Shown: piece after piece, positions 500-55,289 of the stretch
How positions within the stretch are numbered: position 1 is the first letter of the stretch
Layout of the letters: the number at the start of each line of letters is the position of its first letter
Source: Sandaracinus sp.
GTDB lineage: Bacteria; Myxococcota_A; Polyangia; Polyangiales; Houyiibacteriaceae
Assembly: GCA_002699025.1 (NCBI GenBank)
Contig: PABA01000106.1
Location: forward strand, 1 to 55,289
Direction of reading: 5' to 3'
Length of the DNA: 55,289 bases
Notes under the pieces: generated by a model
The model's input: the letters and a program-made list of their open reading frames with translations, nothing else
What the model was told of the DNA's origin: nothing
Databases searched by the model: none
Translations under genes and position numbers: made by a program

Positions 500-2617
500 C
501 TAGGGGAAGAGCGCGTCGAGGGCGGCCAGGTCGTCTTCCGGCCCGGTGGACGGCGGCTGCGTCGGCAGGAGGAGCACGGCGCGGCCCGTGGCGACCCGGA
601 CGCGACCCATGCGCACCTCGCCGTGGGAGAGGCCCTTGCCGTGGAGGGTCTCGAGGGCGCTGCGGATCTGTTCGCGCGCCCGGTCGCGCTGCGCGTCCGT
701 GAGAGCGGCGCGCGTGAGCGGCTCGCCGGCCGGGTCCTCGAGGATCGCCCGCTCCGCTTCGGGCTCGAGGTCGAAGATCGCCTGCAGGAAGGGGCCGTCG
801 GCCTGCGCGTAGTGCTTGAGCCAGCTCGCGCGCTCGGCGTCGCAGGGCTCGATGCGCACCGCGCGCGCGAGGAGCGTGTCGTGGGCCCGGTACGCGCCGC
901 CCTCGAGGGGCTGCTCCATCGCGTAGCGGTCCGGGGCCGCCGGCACGGAGGAGGGGCGCGGCGCCGAAGAGGGGCGCGCGTCGGCGTCGGCCTCGGCCTC
1001 GCTCGGCTTCGCGCGTTGCTCCTCGACGAGGCGCTCGAGGGCGTTCTCGTCCGGGTCGGTCCAGTCGAGCTCGGCGAGGAGGCGCCGCACCTCGTCCACG
1101 CCCTGGGGCCGCTCCTCGAGGGGCTTGGCGAGGAGGCGCTCGAGGAGCGGGTCGAAGCGGGGGCCGAGGCGGGGGCGCCGCCGGGAGATCGGCTCGGCCG
1201 TCGCCTCGAGCTGCTGGGTCACGAAGTCCGGGCCGGGGAAGGGGAGGGCGCCGGTGAGGAGCTGGTAGAGGATGCAGCCGAAGGCGTAGAGGTCGGTGCC
1301 GGCCTCGGGGCGCTGGGAGCCGGTGATCTGCTCCGGGGCCATGTAGGCGAGGGTTCCGAGGAGGGCGCCGGTGAGGGTGGCGCCGAGATCCTGGAGGTGG
1401 GCGACGCCGAAGTCGCCGATCTTCACGTCGCCGGTGGCGCCGAAGAAGACGTTCGCCGGCTTGAGGTCGCGGTGGATGACGCCGCGGCGGTGCACGGCCT
1501 CGAGGCCCCGGAGGATGCTCGCGGCGACGTGCTGCACGACGGCGAGCGGGAGGGGGCCCTCGTGCTCCTCGAGGCGGTCGGCGAGCGTGCCGCCGGCCAT
1601 GTACTCCATGACGAGGAAGGGGCCGTCGGGGTTGAACTCGTGGACGTGGACGACGTTCGGGTGCTCGAGGCCGGCGGCGACCCGGGCCTCGCGGGCGAAG
1701 CGGGTGTAGGCGTCGCGGCCCGCGGCGCCCGTGCCGACGCTGAGCACCTTCACGGCGACCTCGCGGTCGTAGAAGCCGTCGTGGGCGAGGAGCACGCGGC
1801 CGGTGGCGCCGGCGCCGAGGGGGCGGACGACGCGGTAGCGGCCGGCGAGGAGCTGGGCGGCCTCTTCGCCGGCGGCGAGGCCGGCGAGGCCCTTTCGGTT
1901 GCCGAAGGTCTTCTCGAGGAAGTCCGGCACGCGGACCGGGAGCGCCGGGTCCTCCTCGCGGAGGCGGTCGAGGCAGGCGCCGGCGGCCTGGTCCATGCCG
2001 AGGGCGTCGAAGCAGGCCACGAGGAGCTCGAGGGCCGGGTGGCTGCGTTCCGGATCCTTCTCGGCGGTCTGGAGCGCCCGGGCGGCGTGGTCGAAGCGGC
2101 CGAAGTGGGCGAGGATGCGGCCGAGGCGAAGGGCGGCCTCGCCGTCGGTCGGGTCCTCCTTCACGCGGCGCTCGTAGAGCATGCCGGCCTCGCGGTAGCG
2201 GCCGGCGGACTCCTCGCAGCGGGCGGCCTCGAAGAGCTCGCCGGCGCGGGCGTAGAGCTGGGCGGCCTCCTGGACCTCGCCGGCGGCTTCGCGGAGGCGC
2301 GCGGCGTCGACGATGCGTCCCTTGCGCTCGGCGGCGGCGGCGGCCTCGAGGGCCTGGTCGGGGTGCTCGGGGAGGAGGCGCATGAGGCGGGCGAGGGCCT
2401 GGCGGTCCTCGCCGGCGAGGGCGTGGGCGTAGGCGAGGGCGTAGAGGTCGTTCTCCTCGGCGACGGCGATGGCGTTCGGCCAATCCCAGACGGCGGCGTA
2501 GAGCTCGGAGGCGCGGCGGGGCTCGCCGGCCTGGAGGCAGAGGTTCGCGGCCTCCGCGTAGCGGCCTGCTTTGCGGAGGGCGTCGACGCGGCCTTTCAGA
2601 TCGTCGTCGGGCTCCAT
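500..2617 (-). CDS. Ser/Thr protein kinase with N-terminal helical repeats and a degenerate C-terminal kinase-like domain
   Basis: This 705-residue cytoplasmic protein begins with about 245 residues of Ala/Glu/Arg-rich TPR-like helical repeats. A complete Hanks-type kinase domain follows at about 258-520: glycine loop LGAGATGRV, catalytic Lys290 in VAVKV, HRDLKPAN at 382-389, DFG at 402-404 and APE at 427-429. No membrane segment is present. After an acidic Ala/Pro-rich linker, residues 563-705 look like a second, decayed kinase N-lobe and catalytic loop: RYAMEQPLEGGAYRAHD, an internal LHGKGLSHGEVRMGR where HRDLKPxN is expected, and no DFG or C-lobe. The frame ends there. A small hairpin (458-474) lies 26 nt past the stop. 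Upstream is the dispersed repeat starting at 2667. The kinase call is firm. The pseudokinase reading is my inference from residue patterns. Confidence 0.93.
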   Translation of the reverse strand: MEPDDDLKGRVDALRKAGRYAEAANLCLQAGEPRRASELYAAVWDWPNAIAVAEENDLYALAYAHALAGEDRQALARLMRLLPEHPDQALEAAAAAERKGRIVDAARLREAAGEVQEAAQLYARAGELFEAARCEESAGRYREAGMLYERRVKEDPTDGEAALRLGRILAHFGRFDHAARALQTAEKDPERSHPALELLVACFDALGMDQAAGACLDRLREEDPALPVRVPDFLEKTFGNRKGLAGLAAGEEAAQLLAGRYRVVRPLGAGATGRVLLAHDGFYDREVAVKVLSVGTGAAGRDAYTRFAREARVAAGLEHPNVVHVHEFNPDGPFLVMEYMAGGTLADRLEEHEGPLPLAVVQHVAASILRGLEAVHRRGVIHRDLKPANVFFGATGDVKIGDFGVAHLQDLGATLTGALLGTLAYMAPEQITGSQRPEAGTDLYAFGCILYQLLTGALPFPGPDFVTQQLEATAEPISRRRPRLGPRFDPLLERLLAKPLEERPQGVDEVRRLLAELDWTDPDENALERLVEEQRAKPSEAEADADARPSSAPRPSSVPAAPDRYAMEQPLEGGAYRAHDTLLARAVRIEPCDAERASWLKHYAQADGPFLQAIFDLEPEAERAILEDPAGEPLTRAALTDAQRDRAREQIRSALETLHGKGLSHGEVRMGRVRVATGRAVLLLPTQPPSTGPEDDLAALDALFP

Positions 2618-2666
2618 GCCCCGACTCTAGACCGCGGGGATGGCGATGCCCATGCCCACGCCGAAG

Positions 2667-3123
2667 ACCCGTGCCGAAGACCCGTGCCCGTGCCCATGCC
2701 CTTGCCCGTGCCCGTCGGTCTCCATGGTCGTCGGGTCTGCCGAGTGGTCTCGTGTCGAGCTGAGCACGTCGGGCACGGGGGGAGGGGACGGGCCCCGCGG
2801 GACCCCGCTCCGGCTCGCACCCGCCTTGCGGCGGATGCTCCGCCTGCGCTCCGAAGCTCGCCCAGGACGTCGGCTGAAGCCGCCGCCCTGGACGACTTCT
2901 ATGGTCCCGCGGGGCCCGTCCCCTCCCCCCTCCGTGGTCCTCGTGGTCGGCGCGGAGAGTGAGTGGCTTGGGGGCTCGCCGCCTCGTCGAAAGCCGAAGA
3001 GGCGACGAGCCCTGGCTCCTCCTGCCCGTGGTCCTCTCGACCCCGTCCGGCTTCGCCGTCCGCGGCCTTCGCGGGTCCATGGAGATCCCGATGCGGGGAG
3101 CGCGCGTCGCTTCGCGTCGCCCG
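2667..3123. repeat. Dispersed structured repeat, copy 1
   Basis: This non-coding block recurs in the same orientation at 54652-55289 with high identity over most of its length. In order it holds CCCGTG/CCCATG hexamers (2681-2716), a conserved 60-nt segment, a perfect 28-bp inverted repeat (2777-2804 with 2903-2930) enclosing a 98-nt loop, a GAGTGAGTGGCTTGGGGGC segment, and a tail with a 7-bp stem (2983-2989 with 3003-3009). It starts about 50 bp upstream of the kinase start codon. Long open frames crossing it are GC-bias shadows. Copy 2 stands in the same relation to ppk1. Confidence 0.85.
2777..2930. other. Conserved hairpin core of dispersed repeat copy 1
   Basis: The 28-nt arms are exact reverse complements. 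Inside the loop, 2817-2825 pairs with 2830-2838 (eight of nine pairs, TTGC loop), and 2872-2881 forms a small GGCT-GA-AGCC hairpin. Copy 2 has hairpins at the same offsets with different sequences. That suggests selection on structure, in RNA or as extruded DNA. Confidence 0.7.
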
Positions 3124-3394
3124 CCCCCGCGACCGCCTCCGCCTCGCCGTCGACTTCGCGACGACGAGGCTGCGCAGCGCGTCCCGCGTCGGGGCGCGTT
3201 CGAGGTCGGCTCCGCCTCCCTCGCCCGCTCTCCCGGCGTGATGAGCGAGGGCGCGTCCGACCTCCGTCGGGCGTGGCGTCGCGTGGGTCCCCACGTCCCG
3301 ACTCGGGGCGCGGGACGAGGTCGGCTGACGCCTCCCCCGCCCGCTCTTCCGTCACTCGGGAGTTTCGCGTCGTCATGCGCTGCGCGCCGACGAC
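3124..3394. other. Non-coding GC-rich spacer with an imperfect internal duplication
   Basis: I see no gene here. Two similar segments, about 3185-3235 and 3298-3350, share GAGGTCGGCT followed by a CGCCTCC/CGCCCGCTCT tract, which suggests an old local duplication. Confidence 0.5.
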
Positions 3395-3556
3395 AGCTCG
3401 CGCCGCCGCTCCAGCTCGCGCGGTCGCTCCAGCTCGCGCCGCCGCTCCAGCTCGCGCGGTCGCTCCAGCTCGCGCCGCCGCTCCAGCTCGCGCCGCCGCT
3501 CCAGCTCGCGCCGCCGCTCCAGCTCGCGCGGTCGCTCCAGCTCGCGCCGCCGCTCC
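3395..3556. repeat. 18-bp tandem repeat array, nine units
   Basis: Nine consecutive 18-nt units start with AGCTCGCGC and alternate between a CGCCGCTCC and a GGTCGCTCC ending. A tenth, decayed unit follows to 3574. The array lies downstream of the amylase gene, whose stop is at 3736 on the minus strand. Confidence 0.95.
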
Positions 3557-3584
3557 CGCTCACGCCACCGGTCCAGCAGCTCGC

Positions 3585-3684
3585 GCTCGAGCTTCCGCGC
3601 TCACGCCCGAGCTTCAGCGCTCACGCTCGAGCTTCCGCGCTCGCGCTCGAGCTTCCGCGCTCACGCTCGAGCTTCCGCCCTCCA
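3585..3684. repeat. 20-bp tandem repeat array, five units
   Basis: Five 20-nt units begin with GCTCGAGCTTC (one has GCCCGAGCTTC) and have only one to three changes each. The array abuts the 18-bp array but has a different unit and period. Confidence 0.92.
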
Positions 3685-3735
3685 ACTCCCGCTCGCCCTC
3701 TTCCGCGCCTCCCGCCCGGGCCGCTTCGCTCGCCG

Positions 3736-5466
3736 CTACTCGACGACCCACACGAACGCGCTCTGCGGCGGCATGTCCACCACCAGCTCGCCGCCCTCCA
3801 CCCGCGCCTCGCCGCCCTCCCAGGCTCCGAGCGCTTCGCGGAAGCGCGCCCCCTCGAGGGCCGCACGGTCGCTCTCGCTGAGCCCGGGGTTCGTCGCGAC
3901 CGGCATGGGGAGGCCGCTCACCGCCTCCTCGCCGCCGTGGATCGCGACGACCACGTGGCTCTCGCCGACGCTGCGGAAGAAGACCCAGACGTCGGCGCCG
4001 CCGTTCGGGCGCCAGAGCTCGGCGTAGCCGCCGCGGCGGAGCGCCGGGAGCGCGCGGCGGAGGGCGATCAGCTCGCGCGTGAGCGCGAAGGTCTCGCCGG
4101 GGTCGCCGACGACGCCCTCCCTCCCGGCGCCGCCGCGCGCCTCGGGGTCGAAGGCCCACGCGGGCATGTCGCGGCGGTTCTCGGGCCACTCGCCGGTGAA
4201 GCCGAGCTCGTCGCCGTAGTAGAGCTGCGGGATGCCGGGGACGGTGAAGAGGGTCGCGAGCGCCAGGCGGTAGCCGGCGACGCGCTCGGCCTCGGGGCGG
4301 CCCTCGCTGGCCTGGAGGAAGCGGGGCACGTCGTGGTTGTCGAGGAGCTGGCTCTTCCGGCGCGCGGCCGCGATGCCGAAGCGGTCGACGTACTCCTGCA
4401 CGCGGCTCGCCACGCCGTTCAACGAGCCGCCGCGCGCGAAGGCGTCGAGCATCGCGCCGTGGAGCGGGAAGTCGAAGAGGCCGTCGAAGCCGGCCTCGAC
4501 GTAGGGCACGAAGGGATCGTAGCCGCTCCCGTCGAGGAGCTCGCCGACGAGCCAGAGATCGCGCTCGGCGCGCACGGTCGGGATCCAGCGCTCGGCGAAG
4601 TAGCTCGCGGGGACGTGCTTCACGGTGTCCATGCGGACGCCGTCGAAGGGGAAGCGGCGGACGAAGCGCGCGCTGTAGGCGTCGAGGTAGGCGGCGACCT
4701 CCTCGCGCTCCTGGGCCAGGTCGGGCAGGCCGGCGAGGGAGCAGCGGCGGGGGTCGTCCTGGCAGGAGGTGCGGCCGTCGTGGAACCAGCCGGGGCGCGT
4801 GCGCGTCAGGCGGGCGCCGTAGCCGACGTGGTTGACGACGAGGTCGGCGACGACGCGGATGCCGCGGCCGTGGAAGTCCTCGAGGAGCGCGTCGAGGGCC
4901 GCCGCGCCGCCGAGCCGCGGCTCGATGGCGCCGTCGTCCGGGTCGTCGAGATCGGCCCAGTAGCCGTGGTAGCCGCAGCCCTCGCCGATGCGGCCCACCT
5001 GCCGCTGCACGGGCGTGATCCAGACGGCGTCGACGCCGAGCTCCTCGAGGTACCCGGCGCGCGCCCGGAGGCCGGCGAAGTCGCCGCCGTGGTAGCGGCG
5101 CGGGTGCGCGGGGTCGAAGCACTCGTCCTCGCCGTCGTTCGCAGGATCGCCGTTCGCGAAGCGGTCGGTGAGCACGAAGTAGAGGGCGGCCGTGTCCTCC
5201 CAGCCGGGGGTGGAGGGGGGCGTCGTCGCGTCCTCGCCGGCGTCCTCGTCGGGCTCGGGCGGGGGATCGCCCCCGTCCTCGGCCGGGGCGCTCGGGGGCA
5301 CCGGGGGCAGCTCGAAGCCGGCCTCGTCGCCCGTGCAGCCGATGACGATCGCGAGGGCGAGCAGGCGGAGGCGGCGGGAGACGGCGAGGCGCCAGGCGGA
5401 TCGCGGCGACCGGACGTGAGGACGCCCGTCGGCTCTGCCGTACGGCTCTCGCTCGCGACACCCCAT
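3736..5466 (-). CDS. Secreted lipoprotein alpha-amylase (GH13)
   Basis: This 576-residue glycoside hydrolase family 13 enzyme should cleave alpha-1,4 glucan bonds outside the cytoplasm. All four GH13 signature regions are present: DLVVNH, GVRMDTVKH (nucleophile Asp), VGELLDG (acid/base Glu) and LLDNHD. A Glu/Asp/Pro-rich linker precedes the barrel, and a small beta-sandwich follows it, as in many amylases. The N-terminus carries LLALAIVIGC, a lipobox that predicts lipid anchoring at the Cys. The ATG at 5466 leaves an unusually long basic stretch of about 30 residues before it, but no closer ATG or GTG exists in frame. The gene stands alone, with repeat arrays downstream. Starch degradation fits the known habits of Sandaracinus-type bacteria. 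The exact substrate is not fixed by the sequence. Confidence 0.93.
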   Translation of the reverse strand: MGCREREPYGRADGRPHVRSPRSAWRLAVSRRLRLLALAIVIGCTGDEAGFELPPVPPSAPAEDGGDPPPEPDEDAGEDATTPPSTPGWEDTAALYFVLTDRFANGDPANDGEDECFDPAHPRRYHGGDFAGLRARAGYLEELGVDAVWITPVQRQVGRIGEGCGYHGYWADLDDPDDGAIEPRLGGAAALDALLEDFHGRGIRVVADLVVNHVGYGARLTRTRPGWFHDGRTSCQDDPRRCSLAGLPDLAQEREEVAAYLDAYSARFVRRFPFDGVRMDTVKHVPASYFAERWIPTVRAERDLWLVGELLDGSGYDPFVPYVEAGFDGLFDFPLHGAMLDAFARGGSLNGVASRVQEYVDRFGIAAARRKSQLLDNHDVPRFLQASEGRPEAERVAGYRLALATLFTVPGIPQLYYGDELGFTGEWPENRRDMPAWAFDPEARGGAGREGVVGDPGETFALTRELIALRRALPALRRGGYAELWRPNGGADVWVFFRSVGESHVVVAIHGGEEAVSGLPMPVATNPGLSESDRAALEGARFREALGAWEGGEARVEGGELVVDMPPQSAFVWVVE

Positions 5467-30891: not shown

Positions 30892-31943
30892 ACCGCCGCG
30901 TCCCCATCGCGGCGCCGCTCGCGCTCGCGTGTCTCCTCGGCGGCTGCCTGAGCTGGCATGCGGGCGCGCCCGCCGAGCCGCCGGAGGAGGGCGCCTTCGC
31001 CACGCTCCGCGGCACGCGCGTGCACTTCGTGGACGAGGGCGAGCCGGGCCAGCCGGCGGTCGTGCTCGTGCACGGCTTCGCCAGCAGCGTGGGGGTCTGG
31101 GCGGGGCTCCGGCCGGCGCTCCGGGAGGCCGGCTACCGCGTGCTCGCCCTCGACCTGAAGGGCTTCGGACACACGGGCCGGCCGGCGCCGGAGGGCGAGC
31201 GGGACTACTCGCCGGCGGAGCAGGCGCGCATCGTGCGCGCGCTGATGGACGCGCGCGGCGTGCACCGGGCGGCCGTGGTCGCGCACTCCTACGGCTCGAG
31301 CGTCGCGCTCCGCCTGGCCCTCGACGCGCCGGAGCGGGTCAGCCACATCGCCCTCTACGACGCCTGGGTCTACGCGGACCAGCTGCCCACGTCCTTCCAC
31401 TGGGCGCGCGCGGGGGGCGTCGGCGAGCTGATCTTCGCGGCCTTCTACCAGGAGCGCTCCGAGGACAAGATCGCCAACGCCTTCTACGACCCGGAGGTCA
31501 TCCCCCAGGCGCTCGTCGACACGGTCGAGGAGCAGGTCTCGCGACCCGGCACGCGGGCGGCCGCCCTCGCCGCCGTGCGCGCCATGCGCTACGAGGCGCA
31601 GGAGGCGCGCTACGGGGAGGTCGAGGCGCCGACGCTGCTCCTCTGGGGGCGCGAGGACTCGGTCACGACCCTCGACTTCGGCGAGCGGCTCTACACCGAG
31701 CTGCCGAACGCCGAGCTGAAGGTCTACCCGCGCTGCGGTCACTTCCCGATGATCGAGGCGCGCCGGCCGAGCACCCGCGATCTGCTCGCCTTCCTCGCGG
31801 CCCATGGCCGGCAGCCGGCGCCCGCCTCGCCCACCGCCGCCGAGCGCGCGCCGTCCCTCCCGCCCGAGGGCGCGCCGGGCGCCGCCGACGGGGCCGTCGA
31901 CGCCGCCGACGCCGACGCCGCTGCCGAGGAGCCCGACGCATGA
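30888..31943 (+). CDS. Lipoprotein alpha/beta hydrolase
   Basis: A 351-residue lipoprotein (lipobox LLGGC, Cys20) with a complete alpha/beta hydrolase domain: VLVHGFASS oxyanion region, nucleophile Ser in VVAHSYGSS, acidic residue in LLWGREDSVT, and His in CGHFPMIE. The last 45 residues are Ala/Asp/Glu-rich and disordered. The nearest relatives in pattern are esterases/lipases of the haloalkane-dehalogenase-like group. Anchored outside the cytoplasm and encoded in a PHA operon, it may cleave esters such as extracellular hydroxyalkanoate oligomers, which is inference. Starts and stops overlap by 4 nt with both neighbours. Confidence 0.88.
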   Translation: MNRRVPIAAPLALACLLGGCLSWHAGAPAEPPEEGAFATLRGTRVHFVDEGEPGQPAVVLVHGFASSVGVWAGLRPALREAGYRVLALDLKGFGHTGRPAPEGERDYSPAEQARIVRALMDARGVHRAAVVAHSYGSSVALRLALDAPERVSHIALYDAWVYADQLPTSFHWARAGGVGELIFAAFYQERSEDKIANAFYDPEVIPQALVDTVEEQVSRPGTRAAALAAVRAMRYEAQEARYGEVEAPTLLLWGREDSVTTLDFGERLYTELPNAELKVYPRCGHFPMIEARRPSTRDLLAFLAAHGRQPAPASPTAAERAPSLPPEGAPGAADGAVDAADADAAAEEPDA

Positions 31944-33559
31944 GCCGCGCGCTGCCCATCGCGGCCCTGTCGTTCGCGGCCCTCTCGCTCGCGGCCCTCG
32001 CCGCGCCGCCCCGCGCCGCCGCCTCCGGCTTCACGGACATCGGCCAGGACATCGAGTCCGAGGGCGAGACCGTCGTGCGCCTCCACGGCGCGCTCCGCAC
32101 CCGCTTCGAGCTCCTCTACAACCTCGACCTCGACCGCGGCCTGAGCCCCGACGGCGCGCCCCTCTTCCCGGTCCCCCTCTCGGACCCGAGCGCGCAGCTC
32201 CTCACGCACGCCGACATGCGCCTGCGCACGGACCTCGCCCTCTACGTCCCCTCGGCGTCGATGGCGATCAAGCTCCGCATCGACACGCTCGACAACCTCA
32301 GCCTCGGCAGCCAGCCGGACGGCGTCCCCTCGGTCGCCGTGAGCCAGCGCCCCGCCGAGACGCCCTTCGTGATCCGCCGCGCCTACGGGGAGGTGCTCAC
32401 CCCCTTCGGCCTGCTCGCGGTCGGGCGCATGGGCAACGAGTGGGGCCTCGGCATGCTCGCGAACGGGGGCGACTGCGCCGACTGCGACTCGGGGGACGCC
32501 GCCGATCGGATCCTCTTCTCGACGCCCGTGCTCGGCCACGTCTGGGCCTTCGCCTTCGATCTCACGGCCACCGGCCCCTACGTGCCGCGGAACGCGCCGA
32601 ACCGCGGGATCGACCTCGACCCCTGGGACGACGTGCGCACCTTCACGGCCGCCGTGCTCGACTTCCACACGGACGTCGCCCGGCGGCGCCGCGCGCGGGC
32701 AGGGCGCATCAGCTTCGAGTACGGCGCCTACGTCTCGCACCGCTGGCAGAACGGCGACGTGCCCGCGCACTACCTCCCGGCGGCCCAGCCCGTGGGCATC
32801 ACGCGCGCGCAGAGCGTCGGGCGCGACTTCCGGGCCACGGCCGTGGACGCCTGGGCGCGGCTCACCCTCCCGGCCGGGCGCGTGGAGCTCGAGGCGGCCT
32901 ACCTCACGGCGCGCATCGGCCAGCCGAGCCTGATCCCCGGCGTGGAGCTGGACGACGCGCTCACGTCGCGGCAGGTCGGCGCCGCCCTCGAGACCGAGTT
33001 CGGGCCGGACCACGCCCTCGGGACGGGGCGCTGGGCGGCGGGCCTCGACGCGGGCTTCGCGAGCGGCGACCCGGCGCCGGGCTTCGGCGCGCTCCTCGGC
33101 GCGAACGACCGGGGCCCGAACGCGCCGCCGGCGCAGCCCGGCGACCTCGATGGTCCGCAGGCGGCGCCGCCCTTCGACACCACCGTCGACAACTTCCGCT
33201 TCCACCCGGACTACCGCATCGACCGGATCCTCTTCCGCGAGATCGTCGGCACGGTCACGGACGCCATCTACCTCCGCCCCCACGCCCGCGTCACCCTCGC
33301 CCAGGTCGGCCCCGGGCGCCTCGACGCCTCGCTCGCCGTCATCGCGAGCTGGGCCGCCGAGCCCTCGTCGACGCCGAACGGCGAGCGCACGCTCGGCCTC
33401 GAGCTCGACCCGACGCTCGCCTACGTCACCCGCGACGGCTTCCTCTTCGCCGCCGAGTACGCCTTCTTCCTGCCCGGCGCCGCCTTCGACAACGCGGCCG
33501 CCGGCCTCTCCGCCAAGCCGGCCCAGCTCATGCGCTTCCGGCTGGGGTTCATGTACTGA
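31940..33559 (+). CDS. Outer-membrane beta-barrel protein (TIGR04551-like)
   Basis: A 539-residue exported protein with a signal peptide ending near AAASG. It consists of amphipathic beta-strands ending in an aromatic C-terminal strand (MRFRLGFMY), which is a typical outer-membrane insertion signal. The segment HGALRTRFELLYNLDLDRGL, the following PDGAPLFPVPL, and RIDTLDNLSLGSQPDG are what I recall of the myxobacterial TIGR04551 family, whose function is unknown. CADCDSG in a loop might form a disulphide. In this operon it could be a channel for hydrophobic acids or oligomers used for PHA synthesis, but nothing in the sequence proves a substrate. Translation is coupled to the hydrolase gene. 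Confidence 0.85.
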   Translation: MSRALPIAALSFAALSLAALAAPPRAAASGFTDIGQDIESEGETVVRLHGALRTRFELLYNLDLDRGLSPDGAPLFPVPLSDPSAQLLTHADMRLRTDLALYVPSASMAIKLRIDTLDNLSLGSQPDGVPSVAVSQRPAETPFVIRRAYGEVLTPFGLLAVGRMGNEWGLGMLANGGDCADCDSGDAADRILFSTPVLGHVWAFAFDLTATGPYVPRNAPNRGIDLDPWDDVRTFTAAVLDFHTDVARRRRARAGRISFEYGAYVSHRWQNGDVPAHYLPAAQPVGITRAQSVGRDFRATAVDAWARLTLPAGRVELEAAYLTARIGQPSLIPGVELDDALTSRQVGAALETEFGPDHALGTGRWAAGLDAGFASGDPAPGFGALLGANDRGPNAPPAQPGDLDGPQAAPPFDTTVDNFRFHPDYRIDRILFREIVGTVTDAIYLRPHARVTLAQVGPGRLDASLAVIASWAAEPSSTPNGERTLGLELDPTLAYVTRDGFLFAAEYAFFLPGAAFDNAAAGLSAKPAQLMRFRLGFMY

Positions 33560-33567
33560 GGATCGAG

Positions 33568-34545
33568 ATGGACCACGTCCCGTGCCCATGCCCGTGCCCA
33601 TGCCCGTGCCCGCAGAGCGGGGAGGCGGCCGGGCGTGTCTCGAGCTCCCCTTGGGCGCCCGGGGGCGTCTCGCCTTCGAAGGACGGTCTCGCTGCCCCCT
33701 CGAAGCTTCCGGCTGGGGCATGGGGCTTCGTCGCCGCGTTGCTGCTCCTCGCGGCCTGCTCCGAGAACCAGACCTTCCCCATGCGCGAGCCCTACCGCCC
33801 CGGCGACCCGGGCCCGCTCGACTGCGTGCCCAACCTCGACGGGCGCATCGACTCCGAGGAGCTCGCCCCCGCGCTCGGCGTCCCCGTCTCCCTCCTCGTG
33901 AACCCGGTCGGCACCACCCGCGAGGTCGACCTCGTCGGCCAGGTGATCGACGAGCGCCGCGTCTGGGACCAGGGCGCCGACTACGCCGACGACCAGCTCG
34001 CGCGCATCGAGGCGAGCGAGCTCGAGGGCTGGTGGTTCGCCGACCGCTTCCCCGGCGCCGAGTTCGTCGCGCCCCTCGACCCGGCCGGCCAGAGCGTCGG
34101 CGTCTACGTGCACGACGAGGCCGCCCTCTTCCTCCTCGGCGTCGCCTCCGCCAGCGAGGACCCGCCCGAGGGTCGGACGCTCCTCGTCTACGACGACCCG
34201 ATCGCCCTCTACCGCTTCCCCATGGAGCCGGGCGCGAGCCACGTGAGCGCGAGCGACATCCGCGACGGCGTCCTCCGCGGCCTCCCCTACGCCGGCCGCG
34301 ACGTCTACGAGGTCCAGGTCGTCAGCGCCGGGCGCCTCGAGCTCCCCGACCTCAGCTTCACGCAGGCGATGCGCGTCGACGTCCGCACGACCGTCTCGCC
34401 CGCCGCCGGCGCCCCCGTGGTGCAGCGCCAGTCGAGCTTCCTCTTCGAGTGCTTCGGCGAGGTCGCCCGCGCCACGGCCCCCATGGGCACCGACACCTTG
34501 GATTTCACGACCGCCGCCGAGCTGCGGCGTTTCTCTCTGGAGTGA
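33568..34545 (+). CDS. Lipoprotein of unknown function, paralogue of the operon's first gene, with a repeat-derived N-terminus
   Basis: A 325-residue protein. Its domain (about residues 88-325) matches the lipoprotein at 29905: DCVPNLDGRIDSEELAP at the start, FLFECFGEVARATAP and AAELRRFSLE at the end. A lipobox follows a hydrophobic run (WGFVAALLLLAAC), but about 50 residues precede it. These include PCPCPCPCPCP encoded by CCCGTG/CCCATG hexamers and a Ser/Pro/Gly stretch. No in-frame ATG or GTG lies between, and a good ribosome site (AGGATCGAG) precedes the ATG at 33568. The N-region thus seems to have been enlarged by repeat DNA. Whether export still works is open. It lies 8 nt after the barrel gene and 4 nt before the PhaE-like gene. 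Confidence 0.82.
   Translation: MDHVPCPCPCPCPCPQSGEAAGRVSSSPWAPGGVSPSKDGLAAPSKLPAGAWGFVAALLLLAACSENQTFPMREPYRPGDPGPLDCVPNLDGRIDSEELAPALGVPVSLLVNPVGTTREVDLVGQVIDERRVWDQGADYADDQLARIEASELEGWWFADRFPGAEFVAPLDPAGQSVGVYVHDEAALFLLGVASASEDPPEGRTLLVYDDPIALYRFPMEPGASHVSASDIRDGVLRGLPYAGRDVYEVQVVSAGRLELPDLSFTQAMRVDVRTTVSPAAGAPVVQRQSSFLFECFGEVARATAPMGTDTLDFTTAAELRRFSLE
33579..33608. repeat. CCCGTG/CCCATG hexamer repeat inside a lipoprotein gene
   Basis: Five alternating hexamers, in frame, encode Pro-Cys repeats. The same hexamer family opens both copies of the dispersed repeat (2681-2716 and from 54652). The length is a multiple of three, so copy changes would not shift the frame. Confidence 0.85.
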
Positions 34546-54651: not shown

Positions 54652-55289
54652 ACCCGTGCCGAAGACCCGTGCCCGTGCCGAAGACCCGTGCCCCTGCCCT
54701 TGCCCGTGCCCCTGCTCGCCGGTCTCCAGGGGCGTCGGGTCTGCCGAGTGGTCTGCGTGTCGAGCTGAGTACGTCGGGCACGGGGGGAGGGGACGGGCCC
54801 CGCGGGACCCCGCTCCGGCTCACCGTCAGCGTGCGCTGACGGTTCCGCCTCCGCTCCGAAGCTCGCCCAGGACGTCGGCTTCGCCGCCGCCCTGGACGAC
54901 TTCTATGGTCCCGCGGGGCCCGTCCCCTCCCCCCTCCGTGGTCCAAGTGGCCGGCGCGGAGAGTGAGTGGCTTGGGGGCGATGGAGGTGCCGTGAACCGA
55001 CGCCACGCGACGATACGGGCCCGTCGAAGCCGCTGACGGCGTTGCGCTCCCTCGACGTAGCGCTGCTACTCCTTCGGTCGTGCGCCTTGCCAGCGACTCC
55101 GACGACCTCCGTCTCGTTCGCGCGTCGTCGGCCCCCGGCACCTCGCCGCCTCGTCGATAGCCGAAGAGACGACGAGCCCTGGCCCCTCCTCCCCGTGATC
55201 CTCTCGGCCCCGTCCGGCTTCGCCGTCCGCGGCCTTCGCGTGTCCGAGGAGATCCCGATGCGGGGAGCGCGCGCCGCTTCGCGTCGCCC
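54652..55289. repeat. Dispersed structured repeat, copy 2 (continues past the window end)
   Basis: Same orientation and order of parts as copy 1 (2667-3123): CCCGTG-type hexamers, the conserved 60-nt segment, the perfect 28-bp inverted repeat (54782-54809 with 54907-54934), the GAGTGAGTGGC segment and the terminal stem (55150-55156 with 55170-55176). An extra segment of about 165 nt (about 54979-55143) is present that copy 1 lacks. The inner hairpin (54822-54830 with 54835-54843, GTGC loop) lies at the same offset as in copy 1 but with unrelated sequence. The match still holds at the last base of the window. Confidence 0.85.

What the first reader, a model, noticed from the sequence alone, without database searches (positions are those of the whole stretch)
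2667..3123. Dispersed non-coding repeat parked directly 5' of two leftward genes
About 450 bp recurs in the same orientation at 54652-55289. Both copies start about 50 bp upstream of a minus-strand gene (the Ser/Thr kinase and ppk1), with the CCCGTG hexamer end towards the start codon. Two copies in 55 kb, both at gene 5' ends, suggest an abundant genomic element that could carry promoters or leader RNA. It encodes no transposase and has no obvious terminal target duplication.
Basis: seen in the sequence. Interest (0 to 1): 0.75.

Follow-up and report, generated by a model that had tools for sequence, protein, structure and literature searches.

The report
Dispersed folding repeat between genes
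A non-coding DNA element of about one kilobase, present some 28 times between the genes of this bacterium, keeps a folded hairpin shape in every copy and ends in a fixed-length G-rich repeat; it looks like an unusual mobile element rather than a switch for the genes beside it.

Summary
The 457 bp are one end of a composite element of about 1.1 kb (window 2660-3735) that fills a whole intergenic gap. About 28 copies of its core lie in this genome. No relative, GTDB contig, phage, plasmid or viral contig searched carries the core.

Across 28 copies the hexamer end faces a start codon 14 times and a stop codon 14 times.

Two features are unexpected. First, a 156-nt domain (2777-2930) folds into a three-way junction. 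Its pairing is kept copy by copy: 99.5% of cells paired, 10 pairs with changes on both sides (0/500 shuffles). Wobble pairs favour one strand, the one ending in GGGCAN. Second, that end is a 33-bp array, (GGGCAN)5GGG. Roughly 190 arrays of exactly five units occur genome-wide, almost never in genes, with the G-strand pointing at the nearest gene edge. This resembles the GGGNATC quadruplex repeats of Xanthomonas and Nostoc (PMC4692102), with opposite polarity.

Best reading: a lineage-specific, non-autonomous mobile repeat whose working form is a folded single strand. The mover is unknown and no empty site could be tested.

The parts
2660..3735 (-). Composite repeat element, copy 1; fills the gap between the alpha-amylase stop (3736) and the kinase start (2617)
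   Evidence: 80% identity over 1067 bp to L009 and further copies; gene calls; flanking genes by Pfam
2681..2713 (-). (GGGCAN)5GGG array, the 3' end of the element on the minus strand
2777..2930 (-). Three-way-junction domain: 27-bp stem enclosing two hairpins
   Evidence: single-strand fold z -12 on minus, -10 on plus
2775..3174 (-). Constant-length core, 400-402 nt in seven copies
2973..3011 (-). Second covarying hairpin (C-G/T-A and G-C/C-G pairs swapped between copies)
   Evidence: pairs 203/242, 212/232, 219/225 of alignment A2
3394..3682 (.). Right-hand tandem arrays: 18-bp unit x10.2 and 20-bp unit x5.2, built of hexamers (SAGCNN on the minus strand); unit sequence differs from copy to copy
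   Evidence: other copies
54653..55289 (-). Copy 2, cut by the contig end
54685..54711 (-). GGGCAN array of copy 2 (4 units + GGG)
54782..54934 (-). Three-way-junction domain of copy 2; its inner hairpin is a quite different sequence but still pairs
54980..55141 (.). About 163-bp extra palindromic module absent from copy 1, present at the same site in L019, L022 and L029
33579..33611 (-). Stand-alone (GGGCAN)5GGG array 19 bp after the stop codon of the plus-strand gene 31940-33559

Best explanation
It is a lineage-specific, non-coding and non-autonomous mobile repeat. Its working form is a folded single strand (RNA or single-stranded DNA) of the strand that is minus in the window. That strand reads: variable 5' hexamer array (SAGCNN)n, a palindromic middle, a 156-nt three-way-junction domain, and a 3' end made of a fixed-length (GGGCAN)5GGG array. 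Copies have been placed into intergenic gaps without regard to gene direction and have mostly survived where they do not sit between divergent promoters. Shown: dispersal to unrelated gene pairs, the fold being kept in individual copies, the strand preference in the junction domain, the fixed array length and the array's orientation at gap edges. Inferred: that copies move by a transposition-like process, that the fold and terminal array are what the moving machinery recognises, and that the machinery is encoded elsewhere in the genome.
For: About 28 core copies flanked by different genes, half in each orientation relative to the facing gene. Core length 400-402 nt in seven copies at 80-93% identity. 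In the junction domain, 14 copies: 99.5% of cells paired, 10 pairs changed on both sides; 0/500 shuffles and no slid structure come near. Private changes in stems: 14 of 19 belong to compensated pairs, 2 give G-U, 3 break a pair; unpaired columns differ twice as much. Non-Watson-Crick cells: 49 are A-C on the plus strand (G-U on minus) against 4 G-T. Fixed array: run lengths 2:11, 3:10, 4:15, 5:33, 6:2, 7:1 in intergenic DNA, one run of two or more units in genes; genome-wide counts imply about 190 arrays of exactly five units. 28 fixed positions nearly invariant while N varies freely. All 18 arrays of the unbiased sample lie nearer the gene their G-strand points at.
Against: No empty site was found, because gene order around the copies is not conserved in relatives. 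No target duplication and no clear terminal inverted repeat; only one inspected full copy (L016) has inverted arrays at both ends. No REP-type transposase in the genome, and the four reverse transcriptases found are not linked to copies. The region right of the core shows neither covariation nor strand bias. By pair position the wobble bias is modest (about 9 against 3); the cell counts are not independent. Compensated changes can also arise by template switching (PMC8794818).
Confidence: 0.45

Rival explanations
1. Host-used bidirectional transcription barrier: the GC-rich hairpins and the C-rich arrays just after stop codons stop or insulate transcription between neighbouring genes, and each copy is kept for that.
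For: 48 of 77 arrays face a stop codon, median 25 nt away. Depleted between divergent genes: 1 of 18 against 28-29% expected, p 0.034. The fold is kept in individual copies.
Against: In co-directional gaps arrays face stops and starts about equally (16 against 14). No U-tract terminators. The core is absent from all 56 relatives, so no host need for it is conserved.
Confidence: 0.25
2. No function and no selection: palindromes and tandem repeats that homogenise themselves by template switching and slippage, spread by recombination.
For: Template switching creates compensated hairpin changes (PMC8794818). Loops differ as TTCA/GAA, near inversions. Local tandem duplications of body plus array are common.
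Against: Slippage predicts a graded length distribution, but runs stop sharply at five units. Template switching predicts no strand bias in wobble pairs. It does not explain dispersal to 28 sites.
Confidence: 0.18
3. Promoter or leader RNA of the downstream gene.
For: Both window copies end about 50 bp from a start codon. The strand that folds best is the sense strand of those two genes.
Against: Half of the copies face a stop codon. Spacing to start codons runs from 13 to 310 bp. No promoter-like site. No Rfam match.
Confidence: 0.07

Closest known systems
GGGNATC / GGGGA(C/T)T quadruplex-forming repeats of Xanthomonas and Nostoc (Rehm et al. 2015, PMC4692102)
   Same: G-tract tandem repeats dispersed over the genome, with a preferred number of units, avoiding genes and divergent gaps, and much closer to one neighbouring gene than the other (28 against 160 nt there; medians 25 or 74 against 225 here).
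   Different: Unit is 6 nt (GGGCAN), not 7; preferred number is five, not four. Polarity is opposite: here the 3' end of the G-strand points at the near gene, there the near gene is on the 5' side. CA is as fixed as GGG here. Some copies end a 1-kb folded element; I saw none described in the parts of the paper I read.
Bacterial MITEs (Correia/NEMIS, ERIC, RUP; reviewed in PMC2229807)
   Same: Non-coding, dispersed, mostly intergenic, transcripts predicted to fold into long stem-loops, variants with and without an internal module.
   Different: About 1.1 kb rather than 100-200 bp; GC-rich; no TA ends, target duplication or ordinary terminal inverted repeats seen.
REP/BIME palindromes moved by REP-associated transposases (PMC3733652)
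   Same: Extragenic palindromic repeats; mosaic make-up and single-strand recognition are from general knowledge.
   Different: No Y1 transposase in this genome; the unit is far longer and carries hexamer arrays.
Template-switch-made RNA hairpins (PMC8794818)
   Same: Compensated double changes in hairpins.
   Different: That is a mutational process, not an element; by inference it predicts no strand bias, which is seen here in one domain.

Membership tests
MITE | No protein encoded | tested here: met
   Gene calls leave the element non-coding; all but one of 79 arrays lie outside genes
MITE | Terminal inverted repeats | tested here: inconclusive
   Inverted GGGCAN arrays at both ends in L016 only; single array in most copies
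MITE | Target site duplication | tested here: inconclusive
   None seen by eye at W1, L009, L016; both ends are repeat arrays, so the ends cannot be fixed
MITE | Small size (about 100-200 bp), A+T-rich, TA at ends | tested here: not met
   About 1.1 kb and GC-rich
MITE | Related autonomous element or transposase | not tested
   Only Y1 transposases and reverse transcriptases were sought
REP/RAYT system | Y1 (RAYT) transposase in the genome | tested here: not met
   PF01797: 0 matches; the controls ring in 5 of 14 genomes
Quadruplex-forming tandem repeats (Rehm type) | Four or more G-tracts in a tandem unit with a preferred copy number | tested here: met
   Six GGG tracts, sharp peak at five units
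Quadruplex-forming tandem repeats (Rehm type) | Avoids genes and divergent gaps, close to one neighbour | tested here: met
   polarity opposite to the published case
Quadruplex-forming tandem repeats (Rehm type) | Heptamer GGGNATC or GGGGA(C/T)T unit | tested here: not met
   Unit is the hexamer GGGCAN
Quadruplex-forming tandem repeats (Rehm type) | Forms a quadruplex in vitro | not testable with these tools
   Needs CD spectroscopy
Known structured RNA families (Rfam 15) | Match to a covariance model at gathering score | tested here: not met
   No match in the window or five other copies, none at E up to 5 in 2500-3800
Riboswitch or leader RNA | Consistently upstream of and sense to its gene | tested here: not met
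   14 start-facing against 14 stop-facing copies

The most novel reading that the evidence does not exclude
A bacterial retroposon-like or single-strand element: a structured transcript whose junction domain and 33-nt (GGGCAN)5GGG tail are recognised by a protein reading in steps of six nucleotides, and which is copied into gaps from RNA or single-stranded DNA. The same terminal array, without the body, marks the edges of many other intergenic gaps in the genome.
Probability: 0.15. Interest if true: 0.8.

Novelty: new variant of a known kind. Interest (0 to 1): 0.5.

Why it matters
This element has enough copies, each with a long structured body and a mover not yet known, to test whether selection or template switching keeps hairpins paired. 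The 33-bp array is a second and independent puzzle. It reproduces, in another lineage and with another unit and opposite polarity, the unexplained one-sided placement reported for quadruplex repeats in Xanthomonas and Nostoc. That suggests a general rule about G-rich repeats at the edges of intergenic gaps, which could be tested directly by deletion and RNA-seq.

Tried and rejected
Chance or local duplication: rejected, about 28 core copies genome-wide. 'Always at gene 5' ends': rejected. Insertion next to terminator hairpins: stems of 6 or more pairs occur about as often before stop-facing arrays as at control stops (29% against 24%); the excess of longer stems next to the array is small (6/48 against about 5%), so dropped. 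REP-type transposase as mover: none in the genome. 5'-truncated copies as a sign of target-primed reverse transcription: L024 and L037 lack the middle, but both keep the 5' array and join at a GAGCCGGAGCGGG homology, so internal deletion is simpler. Relatives by covariance model: 1 of 57 genomes, the own one. GTDB contigs and viral contigs by pattern: nothing. Phages: no match; plasmids: one 48-bp hexamer match. Empty-site test: the CPXCG gene beside the DnaK-related gene of L016 is not next to its homologues in relatives, and only 24 adjacent gene pairs were conserved with 1.18 Mb of G007, none next to an array. Strand bias in the region right of the core: none (5 against 6 sites). Conserved body behind the arrays: apart from the CCTGC just before the array no strong common motif.

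Full report
WHAT WAS CHECKED. The two window copies are real: 2667-3123 matches 54672-54979 (90%) and 55142-55289 (93%) in the same orientation. The 457 bp are one end of a larger element. Window 2660-3694 aligns to locus L009 at 80% over 1067 bp. The copy fills the gap between the stop of an alpha-amylase gene at 3736 and the start of a kinase gene at 2617. The window is the whole of contig C117, so copy 2 is cut by the contig end; many other copies also sit at contig ends, as expected of a repeat that breaks an assembly.

ANATOMY, read on the minus strand. (i) A long hexamer array of the form SAGCNN, different in each copy: 18-bp and 20-bp units at 3394-3682 in the window, other units in L009, L012, L014, L016 and L022. 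(ii) A palindromic stretch holding an imperfect repeat of about 105 bp (by inspection). (iii) A core of constant length, 400-402 nt in seven copies, containing a 156-nt three-way junction and a second covarying hairpin. (iv) A linker and the terminal array, consensus GGGCACGGGCANGGGCANGGGCACGGGCACGGGT. About 163 bp of extra palindromic module sit at one fixed place in four of the copies.

THE FOLD. For the junction domain, 14 copies, 60 pairs: 99.5% of cells are standard pairs, 10 pairs have changes on both sides and 32 cells do, and none of 500 shuffles reaches these values. Structures slid by one to three columns have at most one such pair. Of 19 private substitutions in paired columns, 14 belong to compensated pairs, 2 make G-U and 3 break a pair; unpaired columns differ more than twice as much between copies (0.18 against 0.08). 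So the copies do not look like decaying corpses of one master. The structure was predicted from the same alignment, which favours it somewhat, but a single copy alone folds almost the same way with z -12.

WHICH STRAND. In pairs shared by the folds of both strands, plus the single mismatches inside them, departures from Watson-Crick are A-C on the plus strand in 49 cells and G-T in 4. A-C on plus is G-U on minus. The minus strand also folds better, -139 against -122 kcal/mol. Counted by pair position the bias is about 9 to 3, so it is suggestive rather than decisive, and it is absent right of the core. A symmetrical cruciform, or template switching alone, should give no bias (inference). Template switching is known to produce compensated hairpin changes (PMC8794818), and it may well contribute here.

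PLACEMENT. This removes the 5'-leader reading. The terminal array also exists without the body: 79 merged arrays examined, one inside a predicted gene, 52 of 55 nearer to the gene their G-strand points at. In an unbiased 1.03-Mb sample this holds for 18 of 18 (p 7.6e-6), and 1 of 18 is in a divergent gap against 28-29% expected (p 0.034). Distance to stops has a median of 25 nt and to starts 74 nt. Genome G007, another genus of the same family, shows the same placement in several of its arrays.

THE ARRAY IS NOT AN ORDINARY MICROSATELLITE. Run lengths in intergenic DNA peak at five units and almost stop there (2:11, 3:10, 4:15, 5:33, 6:2, 7:1). Whole-genome pattern counts (784 for three units, 215 for five, 14 for six) imply about 190 arrays of exactly five. 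The 28 fixed positions are nearly invariant while the free base takes all four letters. The related genome G010 has long, graded runs instead (465, 210, 131), as slippage would give. With six GGG tracts spaced by three bases it fits the quadruplex motif, but the equal constancy of CA says that more than G-tracts is being kept (inference).

WHAT IT IS LIKE. The array is the same kind of thing as the GGGNATC and GGGGA(C/T)T repeats of Xanthomonas and Nostoc: a preferred unit number, avoidance of genes and divergent gaps, and one near neighbour (PMC4692102). It differs in unit, number and polarity. The long element works like a MITE but fails on size and composition, and its ends and target duplications could not be judged (PMC2229807). 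REP-type movement is unlikely with no Y1 transposase in the genome. Rfam has no match.

DISTRIBUTION. The core was found in no relative by BLAST or covariance model and in no GTDB or viral contig by exact pattern; the strict array with flanks was in no GTDB contig. Phages gave no match and plasmids only a hexamer match. The tools note that the own or very near genomes may be left out of those collections.

EXPLANATION. I take it as a non-autonomous mobile repeat whose working form is a folded single strand. Dispersal, the kept fold, the strand bias in one domain and the array rules are shown. Transposition itself, the nature of the intermediate and the mover are inferred. An empty site could not be tested for lack of conserved gene order. 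The strongest rival is a bidirectional transcription barrier; RNA-seq would separate the two.

Noticed in passing
window 33579-33611: A third, stand-alone (GGGCAN)5GGG array lies 19 bp after a stop codon, without the long body.
   Followed up: yes
G000 C187:78107-78352, C170:61720-61882, L019:2269-2533, L041:5981-6092, L110:3925-4147: Locus-specific 'body plus array' units of about 65-130 bp are tandemly duplicated two to four times, the body being different at each locus.
   Followed up: partly
G010 (same family), e.g. G010:C214:774-926, G010:C376:38307-38381: The same hexamer forms long graded runs, some inside predicted genes, as an ordinary microsatellite would.
   Followed up: partly
G039 (same order): The reversed control pattern GGGNAC...GGG is abundant (171 and 107 hits) where GGGCAN is absent, so another G-rich hexamer array is used in that genome.
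   Followed up: no
L106-L109 (G000 C10, C162, C202, C115): Four reverse-transcriptase genes in the own genome, one resembling a group II intron type by eye; none is next to a copy in the stretches read.
   Followed up: partly
G000 contig ends (e.g. C215, C234, C91, C177, C220, C73, C118, C225): About 20 contig ends fall inside this element, so it is a notable cause of the assembly's fragmentation and copy counts are lower bounds.
   Followed up: partly
L025:4270-4320: A large palindrome (GCGCTACGCCTGAAGGGG...CCCCTTCAGGCGTAGCGC) stands between a stop codon and the array.
   Followed up: no
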